IMG/VR virus record: IMGVR_UViG_3300037502_003770
Coordinates: 1 to 53,642 of that record
Direction: 5' to 3' (one strand)
DNA from: a virus
Length of the DNA: 53,642 nucleotides
The position numbers and the translations under genes are program-made. Under the pieces are notes generated by a model. It saw only the letters and a list, made by a program, of their open reading frames with translations, was not told the DNA's origin and made no database searches. This document shows positions 1,243-27,817 of the stretch, piece after piece (positions within the stretch are counted from its first letter, which is position 1; every line of letters starts with the position of its first letter).

Positions 1243-2700
1243 ATGGATAACGAAAAAAATATTATAACATCTTCTGATGGTTACAAGTACACCCATCATG
1301 AGTTTTACGCTAATAGAACATCTAAAATTTGGTCTTACCTTGAATCAAGAGGTTCTAATTTAGCGGGTTGTGATTATACACAATTTTTTGGTCTTCAAGC
1401 TATGCTACAAGAAGATTTTACTGGTCAAGTAGTCACAAAAGAAAAAATAGAAGAAGCTGAATTTATCGCAAATAATTCTATATCAAAAAATACTTTTGAT
1501 AAGAAAATGTGGAATTATATATTAGATAAACATGAAGGGAGATTACCTCTTTTGATTAGAGCTGTTCCTGAAGGTTTATGTGTTCCAAATAAACAACTTC
1601 TTATGTCAATTGAAAATACTGATAAGAATGTAAATATTCCTATTGCACCTTTGGTTCAATTTGTAGAAAGTAGATTATTAAATATATGGTATCCTATAAC
1701 AGTTGCTACCATTTCTAATTTTTGTAAATCTATAATTAAAGAAGTTTACAAAAGAACTTCTGATAACGATTTTAATTTATTTTCTCTAAATGATTTTGGT
1801 GCTAGAGGTGCAAGTACAGCTAGTTCAGCACAAATTGGTGGGTCAGCACATTTAATTAATTTCTTAGGTACTGATAATATTCCAGCTATTAAATATTTAA
1901 AAACTTTTTACAATAGAAATAGTTTTTATAATGAAGATGGTTCATTAACAAGTTTTGGTTATTCAGCTAACGCAACCGAACACTCAATAATGACTCAAAG
2001 AGGCGAATCAGGTGAACCTGAAATTATTAAACAAGCTTTAAATAAATTTCCTGAAGGTATTCTTGCTTTTGTAATAGATTCTTTTAACTTTATTAGGTTT
2101 ATTGAACAATATATTTGTAAAGATTTTAAAGAAATTATTCAAAATAGAAAAGGTACTGTAGTAGTTAGACCTGATAGTGGACACCCTATACAAACGCTTT
2201 ATAAGATATTTGATTTACTTTTTGAAGGGTATGGTTATACAGTAAATTCAAAAGGTTTTAAAGTACTTCCTAGTTGTATTAGAGTACTTCAAGGTGATTC
2301 AGTTAATGTAAACTCTATTAGAGAGATACTTCTTGCTTTAGAGAAAAGAGGTATTTCAGCAGAAAATATTATTTTTGGAATGGGTGGAAAACTCTTACAA
2401 GCTGAAATTGATAGAGATACTTTTAAATTTGCTATTAAAACTTCTTATACAGTAATTGATGGTAAACCAATTGATATAATTAAAAATCCTATTGAATTAA
2501 ATCATTTAGGTGAAATTGTACCAAGTTTTAAGAAATCCAAACAAGGAAAATTAAAACTTATTATTGATGAGAATGGTAACTTTAAAACAGTTCCTCAAAC
2601 GCAAGATAATTCTGATGATATATTACAAGACGTTTTTAGAAATGGTGAACTTGTTAGATATCAAACATTAGAAGATATTAGAAAAATTAGTTATAAATAA
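1243..2700 (+). CDS. nadV: Nicotinamide phosphoribosyltransferase (NAMPT/NadV family)
   Basis: Family enzymes join nicotinamide to PRPP to make NMN, the first step of NAD+ salvage. The 485 residues match the family length. Recognisable family blocks are FGARGASTASSAQIGGSAHL near 185-205, ATEHSIMTQRGE with the conserved catalytic-type His near 246, VVVRPDSGHP near 306-315, RVLQGDSVN near 346-354 and IIFGMGGKLLQ near 375-385. A PRPP-synthetase homologue lies 1.7 kb downstream on the same strand. The pair could run ordinary NMN salvage. It could also run the ADP-ribose-pyrophosphate route described for phage NARP1, in which a member of this family makes NAD+ directly. The sequence alone does not decide. 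Upstream bases are A-rich (aaagaaagaaaat) with no clear Shine-Dalgarno site. Confidence 0.95.
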   Translation: MDNEKNIITSSDGYKYTHHEFYANRTSKIWSYLESRGSNLAGCDYTQFFGLQAMLQEDFTGQVVTKEKIEEAEFIANNSISKNTFDKKMWNYILDKHEGRLPLLIRAVPEGLCVPNKQLLMSIENTDKNVNIPIAPLVQFVESRLLNIWYPITVATISNFCKSIIKEVYKRTSDNDFNLFSLNDFGARGASTASSAQIGGSAHLINFLGTDNIPAIKYLKTFYNRNSFYNEDGSLTSFGYSANATEHSIMTQRGESGEPEIIKQALNKFPEGILAFVIDSFNFIRFIEQYICKDFKEIIQNRKGTVVVRPDSGHPIQTLYKIFDLLFEGYGYTVNSKGFKVLPSCIRVLQGDSVNVNSIREILLALEKRGISAENIIFGMGGKLLQAEIDRDTFKFAIKTSYTVIDGKPIDIIKNPIELNHLGEIVPSFKKSKQGKLKLIIDENGNFKTVPQTQDNSDDILQDVFRNGELVRYQTLEDIRKISYK

Positions 2701-3909: not shown

Positions 3910-4134
3910 ATGAAACTATTTGATAATACACCATCTGAAAAATTTTTTATTTTTCTAAAATTCTTTTTTAAAATATATGTTTTAACACTTTTAGCTATGG
4001 CTGCTTTTAGTTACCTATCTACAATTAATTTAATTATTGTAGGTATTGTTTATATAGGTTTTCCTTTATTTGAATTTTTTCATTTTGGAAAAAAAGTAGA
4101 ATTAAAACAATCACAAGATGATGACGATGAATAA
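3910..4134 (+). CDS. Small membrane protein with acidic tail
   Basis: This 74-residue protein has two hydrophobic segments (about 12-36 and 39-60) and a polar tail ending KQSQDDDDE. No family is recognised. It is preceded by a perfect palindrome and followed, two bases after its stop, by an ATG that opens a frame broken at a tetranucleotide repeat. Confidence 0.65.
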   Translation: MKLFDNTPSEKFFIFLKFFFKIYVLTLLAMAAFSYLSTINLIIVGIVYIGFPLFEFFHFGKKVELKQSQDDDDE

Positions 4135-4197: not shown

Positions 4198-4431
4198 TTG
4201 TTAAAAAGTAAATTTAAGTATAATACTTTTTCTTTTGAAGAAGGCGATATTTATGTTGAAATAATTGATAATGAAGAATTAGAAATTTCATCATTGATGT
4301 CAATTACTTTAGAATTTAATAAATTATATTTTAATTTTTTTAGTTTTAATACAAAGTTTGATTTAGAACTACCTGACGAAACTTTAAGTTACATTAAAAA
4401 CATTTTAACTTCAGAAAAAGCCACTTCATAA
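4198..4431 (+). CDS. Hypothetical protein, probable N-terminal frame break
   Basis: The longest uninterrupted stretch from a usable start begins at TTG (4198) and gives 77 residues (MLKSKFKYNTFSFEEG to ILTSEKATS). No family is recognised. The frame is open upstream to 4156 and reads sensible codons (YRYDLIRDIKS). The natural start is therefore probably the ATG at 4137, cut off by one extra AATA unit. The stop shares one base with the PRPP-synthetase start (TAATG), so the state of this gene could also affect translation of that enzyme. Confidence 0.6.
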   Translation: MLKSKFKYNTFSFEEGDIYVEIIDNEELEISSLMSITLEFNKLYFNFFSFNTKFDLELPDETLSYIKNILTSEKATS

Positions 4432-5402
4432 TGAAAAAAGAAAAACCTTTATTTTTATCGTTTATTAATAATGAAATAGATTTAAGTAATAATACCTTCT
4501 TTAATAAAGAGGTAATTAAACCAATTTATTTCTCAGATAATGAACATAAGATTGTTTTACCTTGTTCTGTTAATAATATGGAGGTTTTTCTTTATAAGAA
4601 ATTCACACCCAATTCTGATAAATTATACGCTGATGTATTTGAATTATTAAATACAATTGATGCTCTTAATAGAAATAACGTATCAAAAATACATTTAGTA
4701 ATTCCTTATTTACCTTTCTCAAGACAGGAAAGAAAGAATAATGAAAGAAGTTCTATAACAGCAAAAATGCTTGCTAAATTATTAAATGACCAAAATATTC
4801 AAACATTATTTACTTATGATTTACATACTTCTGTAATAGAGGCTTTCTATGATTTTCAAGTAAATAATCTTTCACCATTAGGATTAATGCCTCATAGTAG
4901 TATTACTAATAATGATACTATATTTATTTCACCTGATTTTGGTGCTTTAAAGAAAACCAAAACGTTATTTTCTTCTTTTACTCAAGAAAATACTGAATAT
5001 GAAAGATTTCTTTATTTAGATAAAACAAGAACTACTCATAATGAAATTTCTCAAATGACAATAATGTCAAATAACACTAGCATTATTGAAGGAAAAGAAG
5101 TATTTATTTATGATGATATTATTGATACAGGTGGAACAATTTTTAAAGCTGCTGAACTTATAAGAAAGTATAACCCTAAAAGTATAACTTTTTTTGCGAC
5201 ACATGGCATATTTTCTAAAGGAGTAAATCAGACTTGTGAAAAACTTTCACAATATATAGATAATATAATAACAACTAATACTTTAAATAATAAAGAATTT
5301 AAAGACGAAACTAAATTACAAATAACAAATATTGATTCTCATATATTAAACATATTAGAATTACATAAATCCCAAATATCTCTTCATGAATACAGAATGT
5401 AA
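4431..5402 (+). CDS. prs: Ribose-phosphate pyrophosphokinase family protein (PRPP synthetase-like)
   Basis: Family members move the beta,gamma-pyrophosphate of ATP to ribose 5-phosphate to make PRPP. The 323 residues match bacterial length. Landmarks are the ATP-loop PFSRQERKNNERSSITAK (RQERK at 98-102), DLHTSVIEAFYD with the metal-binding His near 128, SPDFGALKKTK, and the phosphoribosyl loop DDIIDTGGT at 228-236. Together with the NAMPT-like protein it could supply PRPP for NMN, or make ADP-ribose pyrophosphate as the NARP1 enzyme of this family does. Substrate choice cannot be read here. It overlaps the gene upstream by one base and the one downstream by 17. Confidence 0.93.
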   Translation: MKKEKPLFLSFINNEIDLSNNTFFNKEVIKPIYFSDNEHKIVLPCSVNNMEVFLYKKFTPNSDKLYADVFELLNTIDALNRNNVSKIHLVIPYLPFSRQERKNNERSSITAKMLAKLLNDQNIQTLFTYDLHTSVIEAFYDFQVNNLSPLGLMPHSSITNNDTIFISPDFGALKKTKTLFSSFTQENTEYERFLYLDKTRTTHNEISQMTIMSNNTSIIEGKEVFIYDDIIDTGGTIFKAAELIRKYNPKSITFFATHGIFSKGVNQTCEKLSQYIDNIITTNTLNNKEFKDETKLQITNIDSHILNILELHKSQISLHEYRM

Positions 5403-13045: not shown

Positions 13046-13061
13046 TTTTGACTATTTATAT
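13046..13061 (+). promoter_or_regulatory. Promoter candidate TTTTGACTATTTATAT
   Basis: These 16 bases lie in the 31-base gap before the resolvase gene, with CTATTTA starting 22 bases upstream of its ATG. The identical 16-mer occurs upstream of tnpB at 22155-22170. Reading it as a -35/-10 pair would put the -10 box on the start codon, so the CTATTTAT core is the more likely element. Confidence 0.5.
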
Positions 13062-18900: not shown

Positions 18901-19440
18901 TTCAATAAATCAGTATCAGACACTCTTTTAAAGAAAGACCCTTCTCAAAGAGAATATTATAGTGATTCACAATTAGAATTAACCAATTATGATTTAGACA
19001 CTGTACAAGAATTATTTACAATGGAAGAAAAAGAAGTTCTATTTTGGAATAGAACTGGTCTTAATCCAAGAGAAATATTTTCTAACTTTGAAACAGTTAT
19101 TCCTTTAGAAGTAGATTTATATATTGAAAAACTAAATTTAGTTAAAGAAAAATTAAAGGAAACCAATACTGTAGTAAAAGCTCATTATGAAAGATATAAT
19201 AATGGTGATGTAGTTTTAACAATGTCCGATAAATATTATATAATAGAAAATGAAGTTGAAAAAGTAATTCCTGAAAAATTCTATCGTTATATTAATAATG
19301 ATTTATATTTAATACCAGCTTCAATTACTGAAAGAGAAGAATATTTACAATTTACTCAAGATAAAGAAGTTTTAAATAAAAAAGAGTTTTTCCTTTGTAG
19401 AGTAAAAGAAGGTGAATTAATAAAGATTAAACAAATATAA
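15988..19440 (+). CDS. DNA polymerase, family B
   Basis: This is the replicative polymerase with proofreading, 1150 residues. The 3'-5' exonuclease shows LDIETTGL (Asp295/Glu297) and HNSEEFDFNF. The polymerase domain shows motif A as EDYSGLYPS (Asp596), motif B as KILNNSNFGALG (659-670), motif C as LDTDG (Asp711/Asp713), and KKNYANLEY downstream matching the KxY region. An acidic insert (AEDFDFDDDSDNINKKR) precedes the exonuclease. All catalytic residues appear present. The last 300 residues form the thumb and a less conserved tail. Confidence 0.95.
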   Translation: MSTNRNYKTLTEEELNNIEKFLNGHNDKQYVTAVETFYNSNIAKLIIKDKNTRKVSIEDYEYKPFIYLKDLKSYNISLFDNDKERLNKALKKYNITINKLQTKDHNGAEVERLFNGYKYLVETSSKYGFNAIANFFKEGGIDLFRKATKSKTYNVLEVKSKNENDLYINIEDNLYLNLKTNKYEIILKDYRYIEFNSIKVSIKNKKVNQEAEDFDFDDDSDNINKKRYYIEEDNNLRVVIDEEIEVGDKLVLNYNISNRNFYFKLTNDEQFLISTGIRLFKGYETYSDVHKLTLDIETTGLDPKRSEIFLIGIKDNYGFEQVLEGSEKQMIIDLFKTLIKIKPSIILGHNSEEFDFNFILKRAELLGIDLTQIQTTLSKEKVIYKKEGSSVKYGNETHFYSQTIMYGFNVIDTMHSVKRAQAINSDIKSANLKYICKFLDVAKPNRIYINEGSDIFGFYKENKNFIINLENSEYFILPDEYQENPNQYLLDKNLDKNFQVITGKEITKRYLLDDLWETLEVDRTYNESTFLLSKLLPVSFARTATIGGAGTWNLIMTSWSYEKNLAIPYTPKKPKFTGGLSRSFKVGFLTKIAKEDYSGLYPSLELEFDIFPKHDITNALFGILLFLKLNRDKFKKLAKDETLEDQLRKFYDSKQLPLKILNNSNFGALGSEFFNWSDFDCAERITCCGRQYLRLMVDYFMQFGATPAVLDTDGCNFILPKMVDIDEKFNKVKPYPISEFIYFNGKKEEKGVDGFLDCLVDNFNNNVLASPYMKLDNDGLWESAINVSKKNYANLEYDKKKNKYKVKYVGNTIKSRTMPEYIEEFINEGVMMILNNKPKEFIEYYYQYLTKIYLKQVPLKQIASKKRIKESITEYINRGVDKTGKPKAKKAFMELLIENNLTTDNIDYVYVINNGTAKSHGDSKVNKKTGKLYSYMLTKEDIEDNPEQIGDYNVAKYIDSFNTRVEKLLLVFNKSVSDTLLKKDPSQREYYSDSQLELTNYDLDTVQELFTMEEKEVLFWNRTGLNPREIFSNFETVIPLEVDLYIEKLNLVKEKLKETNTVVKAHYERYNNGDVVLTMSDKYYIIENEVEKVIPEKFYRYINNDLYLIPASITEREEYLQFTQDKEVLNKKEFFLCRVKEGELIKIKQI

Positions 19441-19447
19441 TTTAACT

Positions 19448-19555
19448 ATGTTAGAAACAATTAAAAATCTTTTTAAAGATAAAACATTTAATCTAGTAAC
19501 ATTATTTGTTTTATATATAAAAACAGTACAATACTTATTATTGCTCATTTTATGA
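19448..19555 (+). CDS. Very small membrane protein (35 aa)
   Basis: An ATG eight bases after the polymerase stop opens a 35-codon frame (MLETIKNLFKDKTF, then a hydrophobic LVTLFVLYI and VQYLLLLIL). It ends with TGA inside the ATGA of the next gene. The filled gap and the coupling overlap support a real gene. It would be a single-span or monotopic membrane peptide of unknown role. Confidence 0.55.
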   Translation: MLETIKNLFKDKTFNLVTLFVLYIKTVQYLLLLIL

Positions 19556-20043
19556 AAAAATACGAAGTTTATAAAAATTTACAAACAAACATAATCTTTC
19601 AAATTCAAGAAATTGATTTTGAAAGATTTAATCAATTAGGTGAAGTTTATTTTAATTATATTGATACTGAAAATAACAAAGACTCAATATTATATGATGA
19701 TATTGAAGAATTTAATTCTAAAAATGAAAAAATAGAGGATAATGAAATAGTAAATAAGTTTAGAAAGTTATATAATATAAATTACTTTACTTCAAAAGTA
19801 AGTACACTATCTTATTCTGAAGCTATTTCTCTTTATAAAAATAGTTTTTCTAAAACAGATAAATTTCTTTATATAAGACCTTTTTTAGAATTAAAATATA
19901 GTAAATATTCTATTGATTATACTTTAAAATATAATACGAAAAACAATAAATTATTACAATCAATATTAGATACTATCGAAAAAAATAAATTTTTTTGTAG
20001 TAAAAATCAATTCTTAAAATTAATTGAGATAATTAAAATATGA
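19552..20043 (+). CDS. Hypothetical protein
   Basis: This 163-residue protein begins MKKYEVYKNLQTNIIFQIQE, has an acidic segment (YDDIEEFNSKNEKIEDNE) and ends in helices (SILDTIEKNKFFCSKNQFLK). No family is recognised. It overlaps the tiny membrane protein and the amidase-like gene by ATGA on both sides, so the three are translationally coupled. Confidence 0.65.
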   Translation: MKKYEVYKNLQTNIIFQIQEIDFERFNQLGEVYFNYIDTENNKDSILYDDIEEFNSKNEKIEDNEIVNKFRKLYNINYFTSKVSTLSYSEAISLYKNSFSKTDKFLYIRPFLELKYSKYSIDYTLKYNTKNNKLLQSILDTIEKNKFFCSKNQFLKLIEIIKI

Positions 20044-20693
20044 TAAATATAATAGAATTAGATGATATTGTAACAAATACTAGATTCTTTGACGGAACTA
20101 ATGTATTAAAAAAGAGAATCATTCTCTCAGATACATTCTCTTCATCAATAGATGATTATATTAATTACATAAAATTATTTCCAACGTATAGAATACCTAA
20201 TTATATAGTTGGGAAAGACGGAAATATTTATCAGATATTAAAAGATAATAATTATAGTTTATTTATTGATGATTATAATTTTCATGGAAAAGATAAAAAA
20301 TCTCAACAAGAATTTAATTCTCAAAGTATTATTGTTTGTTTAGAAAATAATGGTTATTTATCTAATAGTAATGATTTATATTTAAATCACTTAAACCAAG
20401 AAGTAAACAGGTCTTCTGTAATAGAAAAAAATTTTAGAGGATATATTTATTGGGATAAATACAATGAAATACAGATAGAAAATCTTTTTTTATTATTAGA
20501 TTTTTTATCAGAAAAAACAGGTATTCTAATTAAAAATCCAAAAAATAATTCTTCATTATATGAAGGTTTTTTAAATTATAGTGGTTTATTATTCACTTCA
20601 AATATTAATGATTCATATTTATCACCAAACCCTTCCTTTCCATTTTCATCTTTAAAAGAAAAATTTTCTCCTTTAAAAAAGAAAAGTTTATGA
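20040..20693 (+). CDS. Amidase_2-like protein, apparently lacking zinc ligands
   Basis: The 217 residues follow the order of N-acetylmuramoyl-L-alanine amidase (T7 lysozyme/Amidase_2) blocks. IPNYIVGKDGNIYQIL stands for the usual HF-I-x-x-DG-x-I-Y strand pair. NSQSIIVCLENNGYL stands for the N-x-x-S-I-x-V-x-L-x-x-x-G block, YNEIQIENLFLLLDFL for the Q-x-x-x-L helix, and SPNPSFPFSSLK for the D-P-x-P-x-F-P-W end. The expected ligands are replaced: the first His site reads ILSDTF, the second reads LLFTSNIN, and the Asp/Cys before the final Pro reads Leu-Ser. It is probably a binding or structural protein rather than an active lysin. It is coupled by ATGA to the first array gene. Confidence 0.6.
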   Translation: MINIIELDDIVTNTRFFDGTNVLKKRIILSDTFSSSIDDYINYIKLFPTYRIPNYIVGKDGNIYQILKDNNYSLFIDDYNFHGKDKKSQQEFNSQSIIVCLENNGYLSNSNDLYLNHLNQEVNRSSVIEKNFRGYIYWDKYNEIQIENLFLLLDFLSEKTGILIKNPKNNSSLYEGFLNYSGLLFTSNINDSYLSPNPSFPFSSLKEKFSPLKKKSL

Positions 20694-20887
20694 TAATAAA
20701 AATTAAAATTAACAATATTGAATATACTGAAAATTTAATTAATCTTGAATTATTTTCTATTATTAGAATAAAATATTTATCATTATATTTTAATATTAAA
20801 AAGAAAATTTCTTCTTATTATACTATTCTTAAAGACACAGGTTTTGGTGATTTTGAATTTTATTATAATTTTTCTTATTATAATTAA
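20690..20887 (+). CDS. YxE/FxYYN array protein A1
   Basis: First member of the tiny-gene array, 65 residues. N-terminal strand MIIKIKI, YTE at 12-14, variable middle, and exact FSYYN at the stop. ATGA overlap with the amidase-like gene means the array is read as a continuation of that operon. Function unknown; there is no signal peptide. Confidence 0.7.
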   Translation: MIIKIKINNIEYTENLINLELFSIIRIKYLSLYFNIKKKISSYYTILKDTGFGDFEFYYNFSYYN

Positions 20888-20900
20888 TATAATATAATTT

Positions 20901-21164
20901 ATGTTGTTATGTATTAAATTAAATAATGGTTTTAGATATTTTGAATATTTATATGAAATTTCACAATGTGATAAAATAATATTTGATAATGGAATAATAT
21001 ATTACTTAGAAAGTAAGATAGATTTTTTTAATATAGATAATCGTGAAGCATGTATTCTTTTATCCTTTAAAATAAATACTTTATTTGATTATGATTTTAA
21101 TTATATTGATATATATCAAGAAGAATCTTATGATAGAGAAATTAATTCAATTTATTATAGATAG
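20901..21164 (+). CDS. YxE/FxYYN array protein A2
   Basis: 87 residues, the longest member of block A. It starts MLLCIKL, carries YFE at 13-15 and ends NSIYYR, a degenerate form of the terminal motif. The middle is acidic (YLESKIDFFNIDNREAC). Thirteen bases separate it from A1 and six from A3. Function unknown. Confidence 0.65.
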   Translation: MLLCIKLNNGFRYFEYLYEISQCDKIIFDNGIIYYLESKIDFFNIDNREACILLSFKINTLFDYDFNYIDIYQEESYDREINSIYYR

Positions 21165-21170
21165 TTTATT

Positions 21171-21377
21171 ATGGAAATACAAATTCATTTAAATCTTATT
21201 TCATATATTGAAAAATTATTTTCGGATAAGTTTTTTCACTATAAGAAATATACTTATTGTGAAATTTTTAATATAGATGTTCTATTTGTGGAAATAGATA
21301 ATTTTAACATATATTTTAATTATTTAGATTTTTTATCAGAAAATAAAAAAAAATATTTTAACTACTACAATATATGA
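21171..21377 (+). CDS. YxE/FxYYN array protein A3
   Basis: 68 residues with strand MEIQIHL, YIE at 12-14 and terminal YFNYYNI, one residue past the motif. The tyrosines use TAC codons where other members use TAT, so the motif is kept at protein level. ATGA overlap with A4. Confidence 0.7.
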   Translation: MEIQIHLNLISYIEKLFSDKFFHYKKYTYCEIFNIDVLFVEIDNFNIYFNYLDFLSENKKKYFNYYNI

Positions 21378-21592
21378 ATGAGCTTTCTATCAAAATTGAA
21401 ATCAAATCTTTTGAATATATTGAGTTTATTCAATCAAAAGTTACAATATATTCAAGACACAGTACCAATGAAAAATTTATTTTATTTGGTATGAGATGTA
21501 CTAAATATCTTCCGTTTGCTGCCATTTCGTATTATTTTAATAAAATCGAAATGGAAAATTATTTTTTTAATTATTATAATTACTATTTTTAA
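21374..21592 (+). CDS. YxE/FxYYN array protein A4
   Basis: 72 residues with IKIEIKSFEYIEF at the N terminus (YIE 15-17) and FNYYNYYF at the end. The first 20 residues are almost identical to those of A5 while the middle differs completely, which shows a constant start joined to a variable body. Confidence 0.7.
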   Translation: MNELSIKIEIKSFEYIEFIQSKVTIYSRHSTNEKFILFGMRCTKYLPFAAISYYFNKIEMENYFFNYYNYYF

Positions 21593-21814
21593 ATGAAAAA
21601 TCTTTTTATCAAAATCGAAATCAAATCTTTTAAATATATTGAATTTGTTGATTCTCATCAAGGCGTATATTCAAAACATACAATAAAAGAAAACAATTTT
21701 ATTATATCTTGTTTACCTTTAAGAATATATGACCTCAGATATTATTCATTTATTTCTTATTATTATAATTCTTATGAAAAAATATATTCATTTTTTAAAT
21801 ATTACAGTATATGA
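21593..21814 (+). CDS. YxE/FxYYN array protein A5
   Basis: 73 residues that begin directly after the A4 stop. The N terminus IKIEIKSFKYIEF (YIE 15-17) is nearly the same as A4 at both DNA and protein level, indicating recent duplication. It ends FFKYYSI. ATGA overlap with A6. Confidence 0.7.
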   Translation: MKNLFIKIEIKSFKYIEFVDSHQGVYSKHTIKENNFIISCLPLRIYDLRYYSFISYYYNSYEKIYSFFKYYSI

Positions 21815-22008
21815 AAATAGAAATTAAGATAACAGATATTTTTTCATATAAAGAAATGTTTCTTAGTGATTCATTCATGTCTAGTATATCTTTATATCAA
21901 TTAAAATTTAAACAATTATTTTATGTAGATTTTAATCCTATTTTTTATTGGTGCGCTGATGGTTTTAATAATAAAATAAGAAGGAGGTTTAAATATTATG
22001 GAATTTAG
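21811..22008 (+). CDS. YxE/FxYYN array protein A6
   Basis: 65 residues: MKIEIKI, YKE at 13-15, and RFKYYGI at the end. The codons for three consecutive Arg near the end create an AGGAGG, 12 bases before the ATG of the truncated A7. This is probably coincidental, since neighbours lack such sites. Confidence 0.7.
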   Translation: MKIEIKITDIFSYKEMFLSDSFMSSISLYQLKFKQLFYVDFNPIFYWCADGFNNKIRRRFKYYGI

Positions 22009-22108
22009 TATTTTTATAAAAATTTTTAATTTTGAATATAGTGAACAAATATTAGGTTATTTTCCTATAATAGAATTTATATTAGAATTTACTGTTAACA
22101 AAAGATAA
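21998..22108 (+). pseudogene. YxE/FxYYN array protein A7, 5' fragment cut by the TnpB element
   Basis: 36 codons with a normal family start (MEFSIFIKIF, YSE at 14-16) stop abruptly at TVNKR-TAA next to the hairpin that precedes tnpB. The missing C terminus appears beyond tnpB as VYFPYYYN (about 23474-23500). The fragment overlaps A6 by 11 bases. The element therefore most likely inserted inside an intact array gene. Confidence 0.65.
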
Positions 22109-22149
22109 TAAATTTTATTTAAAATTATGTTAATTTTAAATAAAATTTA
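22109..22149. repeat. 19-bp perfect hairpin, probable left-end structure of the TnpB element
   Basis: Arms 22109-22127 and 22131-22149 are exact reverse complements (TAAATTTTATTTAAAATTA on the left) around the loop TGT. It lies between the truncated array gene and the tnpB promoter candidate. IS200/IS605 elements carry subterminal hairpins, so it may mark the left end. It could instead act as a terminator, although no T-tract follows directly. Confidence 0.55.
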
Positions 22150-22154
22150 ATTCT

Positions 22155-22170
22155 TTTTGACTATTTATAT
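22155..22170 (+). promoter_or_regulatory. Promoter candidate upstream of tnpB
   Basis: Sixteen bases identical to those upstream of the resolvase gene (13046-13061), 39-54 bases before the tnpB ATG. A sigma70-like reading (TTGACT, 17 bases, TAATAT) is also possible at this site only. Confidence 0.45.
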
Positions 22171-22208
22171 CTATAATACTAATATTACTTTATTAAAATT
22201 AATTTTTT

Positions 22209-23447
22209 ATGATTCTTTCTGAAAGACATATAATTTCAAAAAAACATCGATTCTTTAAGGAATGTGATTCTGTTTGTTTAAAAAGTAAGAACCTTTATAA
22301 TTATGCTAATTCTTTAATTGAAAGTCATTTTAATAGTACAGGTAAGTACCTTAATTATAATGGTATTAATAGGATAATGATTGATAGTAATAACCTATTT
22401 TATAGAGATTTACCTGCCAAAGTATCTAACCAAACACTAATGCTTCTTGATAAAAATTGGGTTAATTTTTTTAAGGGTATCAAAGATTGGAAGAAAAACC
22501 CTTCAAAATATAAAGGAAAACCAAATCCTCCCTTAAATAAGGAGAGTAATGAAAGGTTTATCACTATTTACGATTCACAAGCTATAAATAAAAAACTTTT
22601 AAAAAAAGGTGTTCTTAAATTATCTAAGACTAAAATAGAGATAAGTTCTAAAAGAAAGAATGTTAAAGAAATAAGAGTTGTCCCTAAGTTATATTCTTAT
22701 GTGATAGAGATAATATATGAAAGGGAAGAAAAACCAAAATTAGAAGATAATAATAAAATATTTTCTATTGATTTAGGTATAAATAATTTAGCTACAGTTA
22801 CCTCTAACCAAAAAGAAATAACCCCTTTTATAATAAATGGAAAACCTTTAAAAAGTATAAATCAATATTATAATAAGAATCTTTCTTTAATAAAGAAGGA
22901 TTTAAAAAGGAGAAATAACAAAGAGAGTAGTAATAAAGTTAAGAAATTAACATATAAAAGAGAAAATAAAGTAAGAGATTATTTGCATAAAGCAAGTAGG
23001 AAAGTAATAAAATTAGCAAAAGAAAAAGATGTTAACACCATAGTAATAGGGAACAATAAAAATTGGAAACAAAAGACTAATATGAGTTCTAAAAATAATC
23101 AGAACTTCGTTAACATACCTCACAATACATTTATAAAAATGCTTTCTTATAAATGTGAATTAGAAGGGTTAAGGATTATATTACAAGAAGAGAGTTACAC
23201 AAGTCAGGCTTCTTTTTTAAATTTAGATTATATACCTACATACAAACCAAATTGTAAAGAAGAATATTCTTTTAGTGGTTATAGAAAAAGTAGGGGATTA
23301 TATAAAGTTAAAGGAAAAGAGAATAAAATAATAAATGCTGATGTTAACGGTTCTTATAATATATTAAGAAAAGCATTTCCAAATGTATTCACAAATGGAA
23401 TAGAGGGTTTATCAGTGAATCCAATAGTTATAAATGTAGGTAGATAA
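22209..23447 (+). CDS. tnpB: TnpB, RNA-guided nuclease of IS200/IS605 family
   Basis: TnpB proteins are RuvC-type nucleases guided by an RNA from the element's right end, and are ancestors of Cas12. The 412 residues show an N-terminal domain, then the RuvC triad: Asp in FSIDLGINNLATV, Glu in LQEESYTSQASF, and Asp in INADVNGSYNILRK. It belongs to the subtype reading SQASFLNLDYIPTY then FSGYRKSRGLY, which lacks the CxxC zinc finger (a single Cys remains there). All three catalytic acids are present, so it may be active. The guide RNA would span its 3' end and the roughly 50 bases before the next gene. Confidence 0.9.
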   Translation: MILSERHIISKKHRFFKECDSVCLKSKNLYNYANSLIESHFNSTGKYLNYNGINRIMIDSNNLFYRDLPAKVSNQTLMLLDKNWVNFFKGIKDWKKNPSKYKGKPNPPLNKESNERFITIYDSQAINKKLLKKGVLKLSKTKIEISSKRKNVKEIRVVPKLYSYVIEIIYEREEKPKLEDNNKIFSIDLGINNLATVTSNQKEITPFIINGKPLKSINQYYNKNLSLIKKDLKRRNNKESSNKVKKLTYKRENKVRDYLHKASRKVIKLAKEKDVNTIVIGNNKNWKQKTNMSSKNNQNFVNIPHNTFIKMLSYKCELEGLRIILQEESYTSQASFLNLDYIPTYKPNCKEEYSFSGYRKSRGLYKVKGKENKIINADVNGSYNILRKAFPNVFTNGIEGLSVNPIVINVGR

Positions 23448-23453
23448 TATTTA

Positions 23454-23500
23454 CATGATTTACCATAAAAACAATACTGTATATTTTCCTTATTATTATA
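23454..23500 (+). pseudogene. 3' remnant of split array gene A7
   Basis: In one frame this gap reads MIYHKNNTVYFPYYYN, which ends in the family-type F-x-Y-Y-x-N signature just before the ATG of A8. It has no room for an N-terminal part of its own. It is best explained as the tail of the gene whose head ends at 22108. The right junction with the TnpB element lies at or shortly before 23470. Confidence 0.5.
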
Positions 23501-23725
23501 ATGAACGATTTTAGAATAAATATCTTTCTTGAAGAAAGTAATTTTCAATATATTGAAAATCATCGTATGTCTATTTGTTGTTTAATATTTTATTATAATT
23601 CTGATAAATATGATGGTTTATATTTAGAAAATTATATGAAAAATAATATGTTTACATGTAACAAATCATCTTTAACTAAAAAAGGAGTATTTCATACAGA
23701 AAATAAATATTATAGGGTTAATTAA
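23501..23725 (+). CDS. YxE/FxYYN array protein A8
   Basis: 74 residues: MNDFRINIFLEESNFQYIEN with YIE at 17-19, a Cys-containing middle (ICCLIFYYN), and ENKYYRVN at the end, a drifted terminal motif. First intact member after the TnpB insertion. Function unknown. Confidence 0.65.
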   Translation: MNDFRINIFLEESNFQYIENHRMSICCLIFYYNSDKYDGLYLENYMKNNMFTCNKSSLTKKGVFHTENKYYRVN

Positions 23726-23728
23726 ACT

Positions 23729-23926
23729 ATGAATATTCAGATTTATATCAATACATATTATACAATATATAAAGAACGAGGTGATTATAATTATAATGAA
23801 GTTTTATCTCAAATTAGAATAAAAATATTTATTATATATTGTTCTTGTAATAATTATTCTATAAATACAAGTAGAATAGTTAATAATAGTACCAAGAAAA
23901 TTATTGCTTTTAAATACTACCACTAA
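23729..23926 (+). CDS. YxE/FxYYN array protein A9
   Basis: 65 residues: MNIQIYI, YKE at 14-16, ending AFKYYH. Its last 17 bases overlap the 3' end of the convergent gp25-like gene, so block A abuts the baseplate module with no spacer. Confidence 0.65.
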   Translation: MNIQIYINTYYTIYKERGDYNYNEVLSQIRIKIFIIYCSCNNYSINTSRIVNNSTKKIIAFKYYH

Positions 23927-24293
23927 AACTTAAAGAAAGCTCATCTATTTCTTTAGTAGATTTATATTGAAAAATTATATTTATTATAAGTCTACTTTCT
24001 ACCTGTTCATTAGTTATTGATAAAATAGTTAATTCTGGAATAAATTTTTCACTTTTTACTTTAATTTCTTGTTTGATTGTATCAAATGAAATATTATCAT
24101 TTTGTTCAAAAAGCATATATTTTAAACGAGTACCATAATCTCTTCTATAATATCTTGTACCTTCATCTGTAGTTAATAAAAGAAATAACTTACTTTTTAA
24201 TTGTTCTTTTGTTGTAAGATTTACTTTTAATGTAGATGAAATATTATCATCTTCTACAGGATATGATAAAGAGAATGTTTTATTTACTGCCAT
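23910..24293 (-). CDS. Baseplate wedge protein, T4 gp25/GPW family
   Basis: 127 residues with the gp25 signature: LFLLLTTDEGTRYYRRDYGT followed by RLKYMLFEQND, matching the L-x-T-x-x-G-E-R-x-x-x-P-x-Y-G-x-x-L pattern. The family forms part of the inner baseplate wedge of contractile tails. It is transcribed leftward, divergent from the gp6-like gene, from a symmetric promoter region. Start chosen at MAVNKTFSL, 30 bases from the CTATTTA motif. Confidence 0.88.
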   Translation of the reverse strand: MAVNKTFSLSYPVEDDNISSTLKVNLTTKEQLKSKLFLLLTTDEGTRYYRRDYGTRLKYMLFEQNDNISFDTIKQEIKVKSEKFIPELTILSITNEQVESRLIINIIFQYKSTKEIDELSLSFSGSI

Positions 24294-24306
24294 TATATTT
24301 TTTTAT

Positions 24307-24323
24307 CTATTTATATTAAATAG
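24307..24323. promoter_or_regulatory. Symmetric divergent promoter candidate
   Basis: CTATTTA-TAT-TAAATAG is a perfect palindrome with a three-base centre. It lies between the divergent gp25-like and gp6-like genes, with the heptamer 30-31 bases from each start codon. Both genes are late in T4, so this is a good late-promoter candidate. Confidence 0.55.
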
Positions 24324-24337
24324 TTACTTATTAAATA

Positions 24338-26161
24338 ATGGCAACAACATTCGATTATTCAAGAAAAAGTTTTACTGAAATAAGACAACTTCTTTTAAAT
24401 TATATAAAAGACACTTATCCTGAAATATATAATGATTTTAATCAAGATTCATCTATTAATTCAGTATTGCTTGAATTAGTGGCTGCATTAGGTGATAATT
24501 TATATTATGCAATAGATAGAAGTGCAAATGAAGTTTTTGTTGAACAAGCACAAACAAGGAAAGCTTTATTCAACTTATCAAAAACTCTTGGGTCAAAGAT
24601 TCCGAATATAAAACCTTCTATTACTGTTTGTGAATTTACAGTATCAGTTCCAGCAAATGGTGATACTTTTTCTACCGAATATTTACCGATTATAAAATAT
24701 GATACCACAATAGAGAGTAATGGTATTACATTTCAACCTGTAGGTGATATAGATTTTTCAAGTAATTTATCATTTTTTGGAACAAATAATAGAAAAATTC
24801 TACCTAGAATAGAAAATGGTCAAGTAATTGATTATCAAATTACAAAAACTGAAATGGTTATTAGTTCATCAATTAGAACTTTTACTCAAACAGTAAGAGA
24901 AGATAATATACAACCATTTTTAAAATTAACTTTACCTGAAACAAATATTGTTGATATATTAGCTGTTATTGTAAAACCTAATATCAATAATACTTCTTTA
25001 CCTACGGAACAAGATTATATTAATGAAGATTATTTATTTTATGAAGTAGATTATTTAGCTGAGAATCAGGTTTTTGTTGAAAATACTAATTTTAGAGAAG
25101 AAGAAATTAAATCAGGGTATTGGAAAAATATAACTAAAAAGTTTATTAAAGAATTTGATGAAAACGGATTTTGTTCAATTACATTTGGCGGAGGTAACGG
25201 TGATTTAAATTATTTAACAAATAGTTTAAAAAATATTAATGGTTTTGATAAAACTAAACAATATTTGTATAATACAGCTCTTGGTGAAATACCAAATATA
25301 AATTCAACAATTTATATTAAATATAGAATAGGTGGTGGAAAACAAGCAAACGTTTCAGCAAATTCTATAAGAACAGTTGTAAATAATAATATGTTTGTTA
25401 ACGGTACAAACCCTGTTATAAATCAAAGAGTAATTAATAGTTTAAGAGTAAATAATACAATACCTGCTTTTGGTGGTAGAGATAGTCTATCTAATGAAGA
25501 AATTAGAAATTTTATAAAGTATAATTTTTCTGAAAATGGAACTTGTTTAACTACCTCTGATTATATGTTGAGACTTCAAAAAATGGAGGGTAAATATGGT
25601 TTACCTTTCAGGACAACAGTTTTTGAAGAAAATAATAAGATTATAATAAGTATTTTAGGTATTGATAGTAATAACAAACTTGATAATCAATCTACTTCTA
25701 TTTTAAAAGAAAATATTTCAGAATATTTATCAAAATTTAGACCAATGAATGATTACGTAGAAGTTAGAGATGGTCAAATTATTAATCTAGCTTATGATTT
25801 TACTTTATTGATTGATAATAGGTCAAATCCAACAGAAATATTACCACAAGTAATACTTGCAGTAAATGAATTTCATGATATAAATAATAATTTCATGGAT
25901 GATGATTTATTCTTAGGTAATCTAATAGAAAAAATAAATAATATTAACGGAGTATTAAATATTAATTCATATGTTGTTTATAATAAAGTAAATGGTCAAT
26001 ATTCAATAAATACTATAAATATGCCTTTAACTAAAGTAGATGATAGTACTTTTAAAATTGATGTACAACAATCAGTTTTATTATCTTCTAAAGATGCTAT
26101 GTTTGAGGTTAAGTTTCCTGAAAAAGATATAAGAATTAATTTTAAAAGAATTACAATTTAA
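24338..26161 (+). CDS. Baseplate wedge protein, gp6/Baseplate_J-like
   Basis: 607 residues. The N terminus FTEIRQLLLNYIKDTYPEIY then DSSINSVLLELVAALGDNL, with Tyr and Ala-rich helices and QTRKALFNLSKTLG, is characteristic of gp6/J-like wedge proteins. The middle is beta-rich (FNITFGGGNGDLNY-type segments). A later part, FRTTVFEENNKIIISILGID, also fits. It should form the wedge dimer that links tube-side and sheath-side parts of the baseplate. It pairs with the divergent gp25-like gene. Confidence 0.85.
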   Translation: MATTFDYSRKSFTEIRQLLLNYIKDTYPEIYNDFNQDSSINSVLLELVAALGDNLYYAIDRSANEVFVEQAQTRKALFNLSKTLGSKIPNIKPSITVCEFTVSVPANGDTFSTEYLPIIKYDTTIESNGITFQPVGDIDFSSNLSFFGTNNRKILPRIENGQVIDYQITKTEMVISSSIRTFTQTVREDNIQPFLKLTLPETNIVDILAVIVKPNINNTSLPTEQDYINEDYLFYEVDYLAENQVFVENTNFREEEIKSGYWKNITKKFIKEFDENGFCSITFGGGNGDLNYLTNSLKNINGFDKTKQYLYNTALGEIPNINSTIYIKYRIGGGKQANVSANSIRTVVNNNMFVNGTNPVINQRVINSLRVNNTIPAFGGRDSLSNEEIRNFIKYNFSENGTCLTTSDYMLRLQKMEGKYGLPFRTTVFEENNKIIISILGIDSNNKLDNQSTSILKENISEYLSKFRPMNDYVEVRDGQIINLAYDFTLLIDNRSNPTEILPQVILAVNEFHDINNNFMDDDLFLGNLIEKINNINGVLNINSYVVYNKVNGQYSINTINMPLTKVDDSTFKIDVQQSVLLSSKDAMFEVKFPEKDIRINFKRITI

Positions 26162-26164
26162 AAA

Positions 26165-27817
26165 ATGAGTAGTTTAGGTAATAAACAAGCAAAATTAAAG
26201 AATAAATTACAATCTATTCTTTCATTTAATGAAAATATTGAAGTTCCTCAAGTTAATTCAGAGATAAGTACTCCTATATTTTTTATTTTAGATTTATTGT
26301 CTATTATAACACCTAGTTTAGATAATATTATTAATAAATTATTTGATGATAATTTTAAGAACATTAATCAACTTGTTAAAATAATTATATATGAAAACCT
26401 TATTCTAAATATAGAGGATAATTCCGTTAATAATATTTTATTTAGTATAGAAATATCTGATATAGATGTTTTAGAATTATATAATAAAGATTATAGAGAT
26501 TTAGTACATAGTAAATTTTATGGTAATGATGTAGTAAATAAAACTATTAGAGATATAATATTTACTAATTCAGAAAGTAATATTTTAAATAAAGGTCTTT
26601 TTATATCAAGAGATAATAATAGACTTAACGTAAGAATAGAATCTTCTCTTGATTATAAATCTTTTCTGTATAATATTATTTTTGATAACAATTTTGTTAT
26701 TTTAGATAAAGATATGATTCTTTCAGAAATAACAAAATTTACATTCAATTATACACAAGAAGAAAATACTGAATCTTCAATATTAACTTATTTAAAATTT
26801 AAAGAATTAATAAATAATATAGAATCTGATAAAGAAGATATTTTTAATTTAAATAAATATAATAAATTTGATGATAAAGTAAATGAAATTATTAAAGGTA
26901 CTTTTACTAAAAAATTAGGTGTATTTAATATTGAAAAAAAAGTAAATAATATTTATTTTTTTAAATTATTTAATAGTAATGATTATATAAATTCTTTTAT
27001 AAATATAGATACGAATTCAGATTTAATAAAAGATTTAAATAAAATAAATAAGCTAACTTCTAGTCTTAAAGTTAATATACCTAATAATACAAATATAGAT
27101 AACATAAGTAGTGATATTAACACAATATCTAAATATAGTAATGAAGGATTAAATAAATTATCTAATTCTAATATGACTATAAATAATATTAAAGGTACTA
27201 CTAGTAATAATACTAATGTTAACAATAATATTAATGATATAAATAACGCAGCAAATAGCGTTGGTAATGCCACTAATATTGCTGTTAATAATTTAAATAA
27301 AGCAAACCAAAGTTTAAATACTTTATCTAATTTTAATGTTCAATCTAATTCATTAAATAATTTACAAGATGATACTATTAATAAATTAAATGATTCATTA
27401 AATGAATTACAAAACTCAGCCATTACTAATTTAACAAAGGTAAGTGAACCTTTAAGTATTGTGTTTAAATATAAAATACTTACTAATTTCATAAATACAA
27501 TCACATTAAGAAGTGTATTAGACCCTAAAATAAAATTATTATTCTCTATGAATCAATATATTCGTAATGGTGAATATATATCTCAAAAAGATATAATCTT
27601 GTACTCTCAAAATTATGAAACTTTAATTAAAAAAATAACTAATGAATTAAACAAGAATTTTATTTGTTTTCTATTTAAGATTTTAAAAAAAGAAATACTT
27701 AAAATTTTAAAAAAAATTTTAACAGCTATAATTAAAGAAAAATTAATTGCTTATAAAAATATATATTTGTCCCTTCTTTTACCAAGACGTGATAGTACTA
27801 ATAATTTTCAAATATAA
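26165..27817 (+). CDS. Probable baseplate-associated protein with Asn-rich linker
   Basis: 550 residues. A mixed N-terminal domain (1-275) is followed by a long low-complexity stretch dominated by Asn, Ile and Ser (about 280-425, e.g. NINDINNAANSVGNATN). The C-terminal domain contains NTITLRSVLDPKIKLLFSMN and a basic amphipathic helix (FKILKKEILKILKKILTAII). No family is recognised. Position three bases after the gp6-like gene suggests a wedge, hub or tape-like structural role. Confidence 0.65.
   Translation: MSSLGNKQAKLKNKLQSILSFNENIEVPQVNSEISTPIFFILDLLSIITPSLDNIINKLFDDNFKNINQLVKIIIYENLILNIEDNSVNNILFSIEISDIDVLELYNKDYRDLVHSKFYGNDVVNKTIRDIIFTNSESNILNKGLFISRDNNRLNVRIESSLDYKSFLYNIIFDNNFVILDKDMILSEITKFTFNYTQEENTESSILTYLKFKELINNIESDKEDIFNLNKYNKFDDKVNEIIKGTFTKKLGVFNIEKKVNNIYFFKLFNSNDYINSFINIDTNSDLIKDLNKINKLTSSLKVNIPNNTNIDNISSDINTISKYSNEGLNKLSNSNMTINNIKGTTSNNTNVNNNINDINNAANSVGNATNIAVNNLNKANQSLNTLSNFNVQSNSLNNLQDDTINKLNDSLNELQNSAITNLTKVSEPLSIVFKYKILTNFINTITLRSVLDPKIKLLFSMNQYIRNGEYISQKDIILYSQNYETLIKKITNELNKNFICFLFKILKKEILKILKKILTAIIKEKLIAYKNIYLSLLLPRRDSTNNFQI

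What the first reader, a model, noticed from the sequence alone, without database searches (positions are those of the whole stretch)
22109..23500. Possibly active phage-borne TnpB without TnpA
The RuvC acids are all present and the gene is full length, yet no tnpA is nearby. It has an identical 16-base promoter candidate to that of the phage resolvase. A phage could use an RNA-guided nuclease against competing phages or for homing into the array. A guide RNA would extend from the tnpB 3' end into the short gap before A8, so its guide would be array sequence.
Basis: partly seen in the sequence, partly recalled or inferred. Interest (0 to 1): 0.65.

Follow-up and report, generated by a model that had tools for sequence, protein, structure and literature searches.

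The report
Phage TnpB nuclease with guide RNA
A giant bacterial virus carries an intact gene for a small RNA-guided DNA-cutting enzyme whose built-in guide RNA is preserved at the end of the gene and appears to be aimed at the uninterrupted version of its own insertion site, which would suit a selfish element spreading between co-infecting phages.

Summary
ORF 22209-23447 is an intact 412-aa TnpB with RuvC residues D188/E328/D378. The 312,694-bp record has no transposase of either TnpA type. The family's own relatives carry an IS607-type serine recombinase, so the missing partner is a serine TnpA, not a Y1 TnpA. The guide-RNA idea is now supported. Across 64 viral relatives, synonymous codons are constrained only in the last ~25 codons. 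Two covarying hairpins lie there. A covariance model built without this phage finds the window's omegaRNA at 23358-23466 (86 bits). The right end is placed at 23480 (..ACT[GT]), so the predicted guide is ATATTTTCCTTATTATTATA (23481-23500), the tail of a small array gene. The left end is weak (GT at 22094-22095). Joining the ends there would read ..LEFTVYFPYYYNERF*, array-like but short. The same genome holds two more TnpBs from separate lineages, each with its own omegaRNA. Most likely this is an IS607-derived tnpB-omegaRNA unit that cuts the empty allele in co-infecting or sibling genomes. Cleavage, TAM and expression are not shown. The shared 16-mer is real, but its promoter role is unproven. 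New member of a known kind.

The parts
22209..23447 (+). tnpB, 412 aa, RuvC D188/E328/D378; no C4 zinc-finger cysteines, as in the rest of its family
   Evidence: AlphaFold model pLDDT 84, best fold matches AsCas12f and ISDra2 TnpB
22094..23480 (+). inferred extent of the inserted element (left end weak, right end good)
22094..22095 (+). candidate left-end exchange core GT (TTTACT[GT]TAACAAAAG)
   Evidence: best left-end profile score in 22000-22209 but only 3.1 bits against 12-17 for intact ends; agrees with the right-end core GT; low confidence
22109..22149 (+). inverted repeat TAAATTTTATTTAAAATTA..TAATTTTAAATAAAATTTA, followed by TTCTTTTT (possible terminator or part of the left end)
   Evidence: self-complementary 16-mers
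22155..22170 (+). 16-mer identical to 13046-13061; AT-rich promoter-like region of tnpB
23358..23480 (+). omegaRNA scaffold overlapping the last ~30 codons of tnpB and running to the right end
   Evidence: (86.2 bits at 23358-23466 with a model that excludes this genome)
23376..23401 (+). omegaRNA hairpin 1 (TTTCCA / TGGAAT and inner pairs)
   Evidence: covariation
23405..23422 (+). omegaRNA hairpin 2 (GGGTTT / GAATCC)
   Evidence: covariation
23439..23464 (+). possible third hairpin spanning the stop codon (GGTAGAT / ATTTACC)
   Evidence: read from the sequence; not tested for covariation
23476..23480 (+). right-end motif ACTGT, exchange core GT at 23479-23480
   Evidence: ACT[NT] at the right end of relatives; core agrees with the left end in most elements where both were found
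23481..23500 (+). predicted guide ATATTTTCCTTATTATTATA
   Evidence: sequence after the right end
21998..22108 (+). 5' part of the array gene (A7) that the element appears to interrupt
23481..23514 (+). 3' tail of that array gene, overlapping the start of A8 as other array genes overlap
   Evidence: flank join reads ..LEFTVYFPYYYNERF*

Best explanation
The locus is an IS607-derived 'TnpB plus omegaRNA' unit in a large phage that has no transposase of its own. The tnpB transcript carries a two-hairpin omegaRNA at its 3' end, and TnpB loads it. The guide is the first ~16-20 nt beyond the right end, which is the phage's own array-gene sequence. The complex would cut any copy of the locus that lacks the element (a co-infecting relative, or a sibling genome after loss), and repair from the occupied copy would restore or spread the element, as a homing endonuclease does. 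Shown here: intact gene, intact omegaRNA, right end, identity of the guide, family kinship with serine-recombinase elements, absence of TnpA. Inferred: expression, loading, cleavage, TAM and homing.
For: Catalytic triad and fold intact. Synonymous constraint only over the last ~25 codons (excess codon identity up to +0.21 at codons 397-406; about +0.07 at most in the printed windows before codon 380), and the window copy keeps the constrained codons AGA-AAA-GCA..ATA-GAG..CCA. Covariation: 95.4% of cells paired, 40 double-change cells against 9.7 in shuffles and 1-6 in slid controls. A model without this genome finds one omegaRNA at each of its three tnpBs and nothing else significant in the record (91.7, 86.2, 44.3 bits; next hit E = 9). 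The three tnpBs fall in three places of the family tree, and serine-recombinase members are scattered through the same tree. Close tnpB-only relatives sit among unrelated flanks. TnpB-driven gene drive has been reported for IS200/605 elements on plasmids (PMC11870625).
Against: No empty site or close relative of the phage was found. The left end is weak, and the joined array gene would be only 43 aa against 65-87 for its neighbours. The family's left flank is GT before the core, here it is CT, so the empty site may carry a poor TAM. No RNA or cleavage data exist. GC3 of this tnpB (0.169 against 0.102 +/- 0.022 for phage genes) points to a fairly recent arrival, so the gene could be intact because it is young.
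Confidence: 0.55

Rival explanations
1. A passive tnpB-only IS607 insertion: it arrived by TnpA acting in trans, is intact only because it is recent, and has no role for the phage or for its own spread.
For: GC3 is higher than that of phage genes, so it is not ameliorated; left end weak; dispensable small-gene array as landing site.
Against: The second copy (195927-197117) is fully ameliorated (GC3 0.087) yet keeps its triad and the strongest omegaRNA score (91.7 bits); three separate lineages are all kept intact.
Confidence: 0.3
2. A weapon or regulator: TnpB with its guide acts against rival phages or host genes rather than its own empty site.
For: Phage-encoded TnpB derivatives have been recruited as RNA-guided regulators (TldR, PMC13418256); rivals that share the array would be cut.
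Against: The guide is simply the flank of the insertion. TldRs have lost the RuvC acids, this protein has not. No stand-alone guide RNA occurs in this genome and no CRISPR-type repeat lies in 19000-27000.
Confidence: 0.1
3. An inactive relic that only looks intact.
For: No expression data; weak left end; the stretch between the hairpins and the right end is longer than in most relatives.
Against: Open frame, triad, constrained codons and both hairpins are all kept.
Confidence: 0.05

Closest known systems
IS607-family elements (serine TnpA + TnpB), here the relatives L004-L007, L079/L080, L098, L107, L110
   Same: TnpB about 41-57% identical, omegaRNA in the tnpB 3' end, right end ACT[NT], 2-bp exchange core as described for IS607 (GG there, PMC6188088)
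   Different: no TnpA in this genome; left end weak
ISFba1-type IS607 TnpB guided by RAGATH-18-derived RNA (PMC11061315)
   Same: RNA-guided nuclease of an IS607 element, guide RNA downstream of tnpB; fold match 8iaz
   Different: NCBIfam IS607_TnpB model scores 21.8 against a cut-off of 350; no Rfam match to the RNA; the AGGAG/GAGGG TAM of that group is not at this site
IS200/IS605 TnpB (ISDra2; PMC8612924)
   Same: same nuclease family, RNA from the 3' end
   Different: no Y1 TnpA beside any relative by a motif scan, nor in this genome; zinc-finger cysteines absent
Other phage-borne TnpBs (Bacillus phage G gp662, Nodularia, Staphylococcus and Lak phages)
   Same: 42-46% identical, mostly without TnpA; TnpB is stated to be frequent in phages (PMC12607003)
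   Different: different insertion sites and guides
TnpB gene drive on plasmids (PMC11870625)
   Same: proposed logic: cut element-free copies in a multi-copy genome
   Different: shown there experimentally for IS200/605 on plasmids; only inferred here for a phage

Membership tests
TnpB RNA-guided nuclease | full-length TnpB protein above curated cut-off | tested here: met
   NF040570, 182 bits against 100; fold search
TnpB RNA-guided nuclease | RuvC triad D/E/D | tested here: met
   D188, E328, D378
TnpB RNA-guided nuclease | omegaRNA overlapping the 3' end of tnpB | tested here: met
TnpB RNA-guided nuclease | guide-directed DNA cleavage with a TAM | not testable with these tools
   needs an in vitro assay
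IS607 element | serine recombinase TnpA in the element | tested here: not met
   PF00239 absent from the whole record; present in 34 of 151 tree members
IS607 element | right end with the family's exchange core | tested here: met
   ACT[GT] at 23476-23480
IS607 element | left end with the family's motif and matching core | tested here: inconclusive
   3.1 bits at GT 22094 against 12-17 in intact elements
IS200/IS605 element | Y1 (HUH) TnpA | tested here: not met
   PF01797 absent; no Y1 motif beside any relative
ISFba1/RAGATH-18 group | RAGATH-18 type RNA and protein above the IS607_TnpB cut-off | tested here: not met
TldR (nuclease-dead TnpB repressor) | loss of the RuvC active site | tested here: not met
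   triad intact
Cas12f CRISPR effector | CRISPR array next to the gene | tested here: not met
   no CRISPR-like direct repeats in 19000-27000
homing endonuclease (functional class) | cuts the allele lacking the element and is copied in | not testable with these tools
   guide equals the insertion flank, empty allele not found

The most novel reading that the evidence does not exclude
TnpB-omegaRNA units without transposase persist and spread in large phages as RNA-guided homing endonucleases: each new insertion reprograms the guide to the empty site, and the polyploid, co-infected phage replication pool supplies the targets. This phage carries three such units from separate lineages.
Probability: 0.4. 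Interest if true: 0.7.

Novelty: new member of a known kind. Interest (0 to 1): 0.4.

Why it matters
It gives a concrete, testable phage TnpB: protein, scaffold, right end and guide are all named. If it homes, it would show that RNA-guided nucleases can act as gene drives inside phage populations, not only on plasmids, and that such an element is re-targeted by every insertion. The omegaRNA family found here is carried by dozens of phages and has no Rfam entry matching it in this window.

Tried and rejected
Related phages through the baseplate and polymerase proteins, to get an empty site: none found. Exact search for the joined empty site in viral contigs: none. Y1-type TnpA as the lost partner: rejected. 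Left-end loss as a rule for phage tnpB-only copies: the motif reaches 8 bits in 14 of 54 phage copies against 18 of 30 TnpA-bearing ones (p = 0.004), but the difference vanishes when only AT-rich loci are compared (p = 0.21 and 0.61), so it is not claimed. A second target of the guide at 731 (one mismatch): it is Phe/Tyr-rich low-complexity sequence inside an unrelated membrane-type protein, treated as chance. Shared 16-mer as proof of common phage control: not accepted.

Full report
What is there. The window is the first 53,642 bases of a 312,694-bp virus record, 21.5% G+C, with phage genes such as a baseplate wedge protein, a family B polymerase and an amidase. ORF 22209-23447 (+) is a complete TnpB of 412 aa. 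D188, E328 and D378 are almost invariant in 141 relatives. An AlphaFold model built from the window and fetched relatives (pLDDT 84) matches AsCas12f, ISDra2 TnpB and ISFba1 TnpB in the PDB. The family lacks the zinc-finger cysteines (read from the alignment).

No transposase. Neither PF00239 nor PF01797 occurs in the record. Of 151 relatives placed in a tree, 34 have an IS607-type serine recombinase upstream, and these are scattered over the tree; no Y1 motif was seen beside any relative. The partner that is missing is therefore a serine TnpA.

The guide RNA. Codon identity among 64 viral relatives exceeds the expectation from codon usage only over the last ~25 codons: AGA, AAA, GCA/GTA, ATA, GAG and CCA are fixed far beyond usage, and the window copy has all of them. 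In 20 sequences the region folds into two hairpins with many compensatory changes: 95.4% of cells paired, covariation score 0.489 against 0.190 in shuffles and at most 0.131 when slid. A model built without this genome scores 86.2 bits (E 5e-13) at 23358-23466. In the whole record it finds only the three tnpB 3' ends (91.7, 86.2 and 44.3 bits; next hit E = 9). The model itself closes the hit at 23466; the right end is taken from the motif described next.

The ends. Relatives finish in ACT[NT] about 10-45 nt after the stop. Where a left end could be aligned it starts GT[NT], and the [NT] pair agreed with that of the right end in all but one of the elements compared by eye, as expected for the 2-bp exchange of IS607 (PMC6188088). 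In the window the right end is ACT[GT] at 23476-23480. The left end is weak: the best site in 22000-22209 is CT[GT] at 22094-22095, 3.1 bits against 12-17, which is about what chance gives in 210 nt. It is favoured only because its core agrees and because joining the flanks there reads MEFSIFIKIFNFEYSEQILGYFPIIEFILEFTVYFPYYYNERF*, whose tail resembles other array genes and overlaps A8 as array genes overlap each other. At 43 aa it is short.

Companions. The record has two more TnpBs, 57% and 45% identical to this one, in different parts of the tree, each beside tandem paralogous genes. GC3 is 0.169 here, 0.087 and 0.152 in the others, and 0.102 +/- 0.022 in other window genes: this copy looks recent, the 195927 copy long resident and still intact. 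The last point is the best hint that such units are kept for a reason.

Mechanism. TnpB of other elements processes its own mRNA into omegaRNA (PMC10278001, abstract) and cuts DNA at the guide (PMC8612924, title and abstract). In plasmids this has been reported to act as a gene drive (PMC11870625). A phage replication pool with many genomes and co-infection offers the same setting, so cutting of the empty allele followed by copying is the best reading, with 0.55 confidence for the whole statement. Expression, loading, cleavage, TAM and homing are inferred. The main rival is a recent passive insertion.

Novelty. TnpB in phages is known (PMC12607003), as are TnpB-only copies and 3'-end omegaRNAs. 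This is a new member of a known kind, with an omegaRNA that Rfam does not recognise here.

Noticed in passing
L147:1186-1296, 1990-2089, 4015-4130; L148:2153-2271; L125:2322-2431; L115:2192-2299; L004:5506-5617; L202 (minus strand, around 1470-1590): Stand-alone omegaRNA-like hairpin pairs in phage contigs, away from any tnpB reading frame; two in the phage of L004 share a leader (AATAGCTAATAAA) and end in the family's right end. They look like internally deleted elements that keep the guide RNA and could act in trans with the phage's TnpB.
   Followed up: partly
window 20690-22108 and 23501-23926: Tight array of small Phe/Tyr-rich genes (65-87 aa) whose ends overlap the next start; no Pfam or PHROG match for those tested.
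   Followed up: partly
G000 62787-63935 and 195927-197117 (outside the window), and window 22209-23447: All three TnpBs of this phage lie in or beside arrays of tandem paralogues, which cover about 17% of the record by a BLAST count; may reflect only that insertions there are tolerated.
   Followed up: partly
L015 (Prevotella phage Lak-A1): The TnpB relative of Lak phage has four stop codons in frame under table 11 and reads through with TAG as a residue.
   Followed up: no
window 1243-2700 and 4431-5402: Nicotinamide phosphoribosyltransferase and ribose-phosphate pyrophosphokinase genes, a possible phage NAD supply pathway.
   Followed up: no
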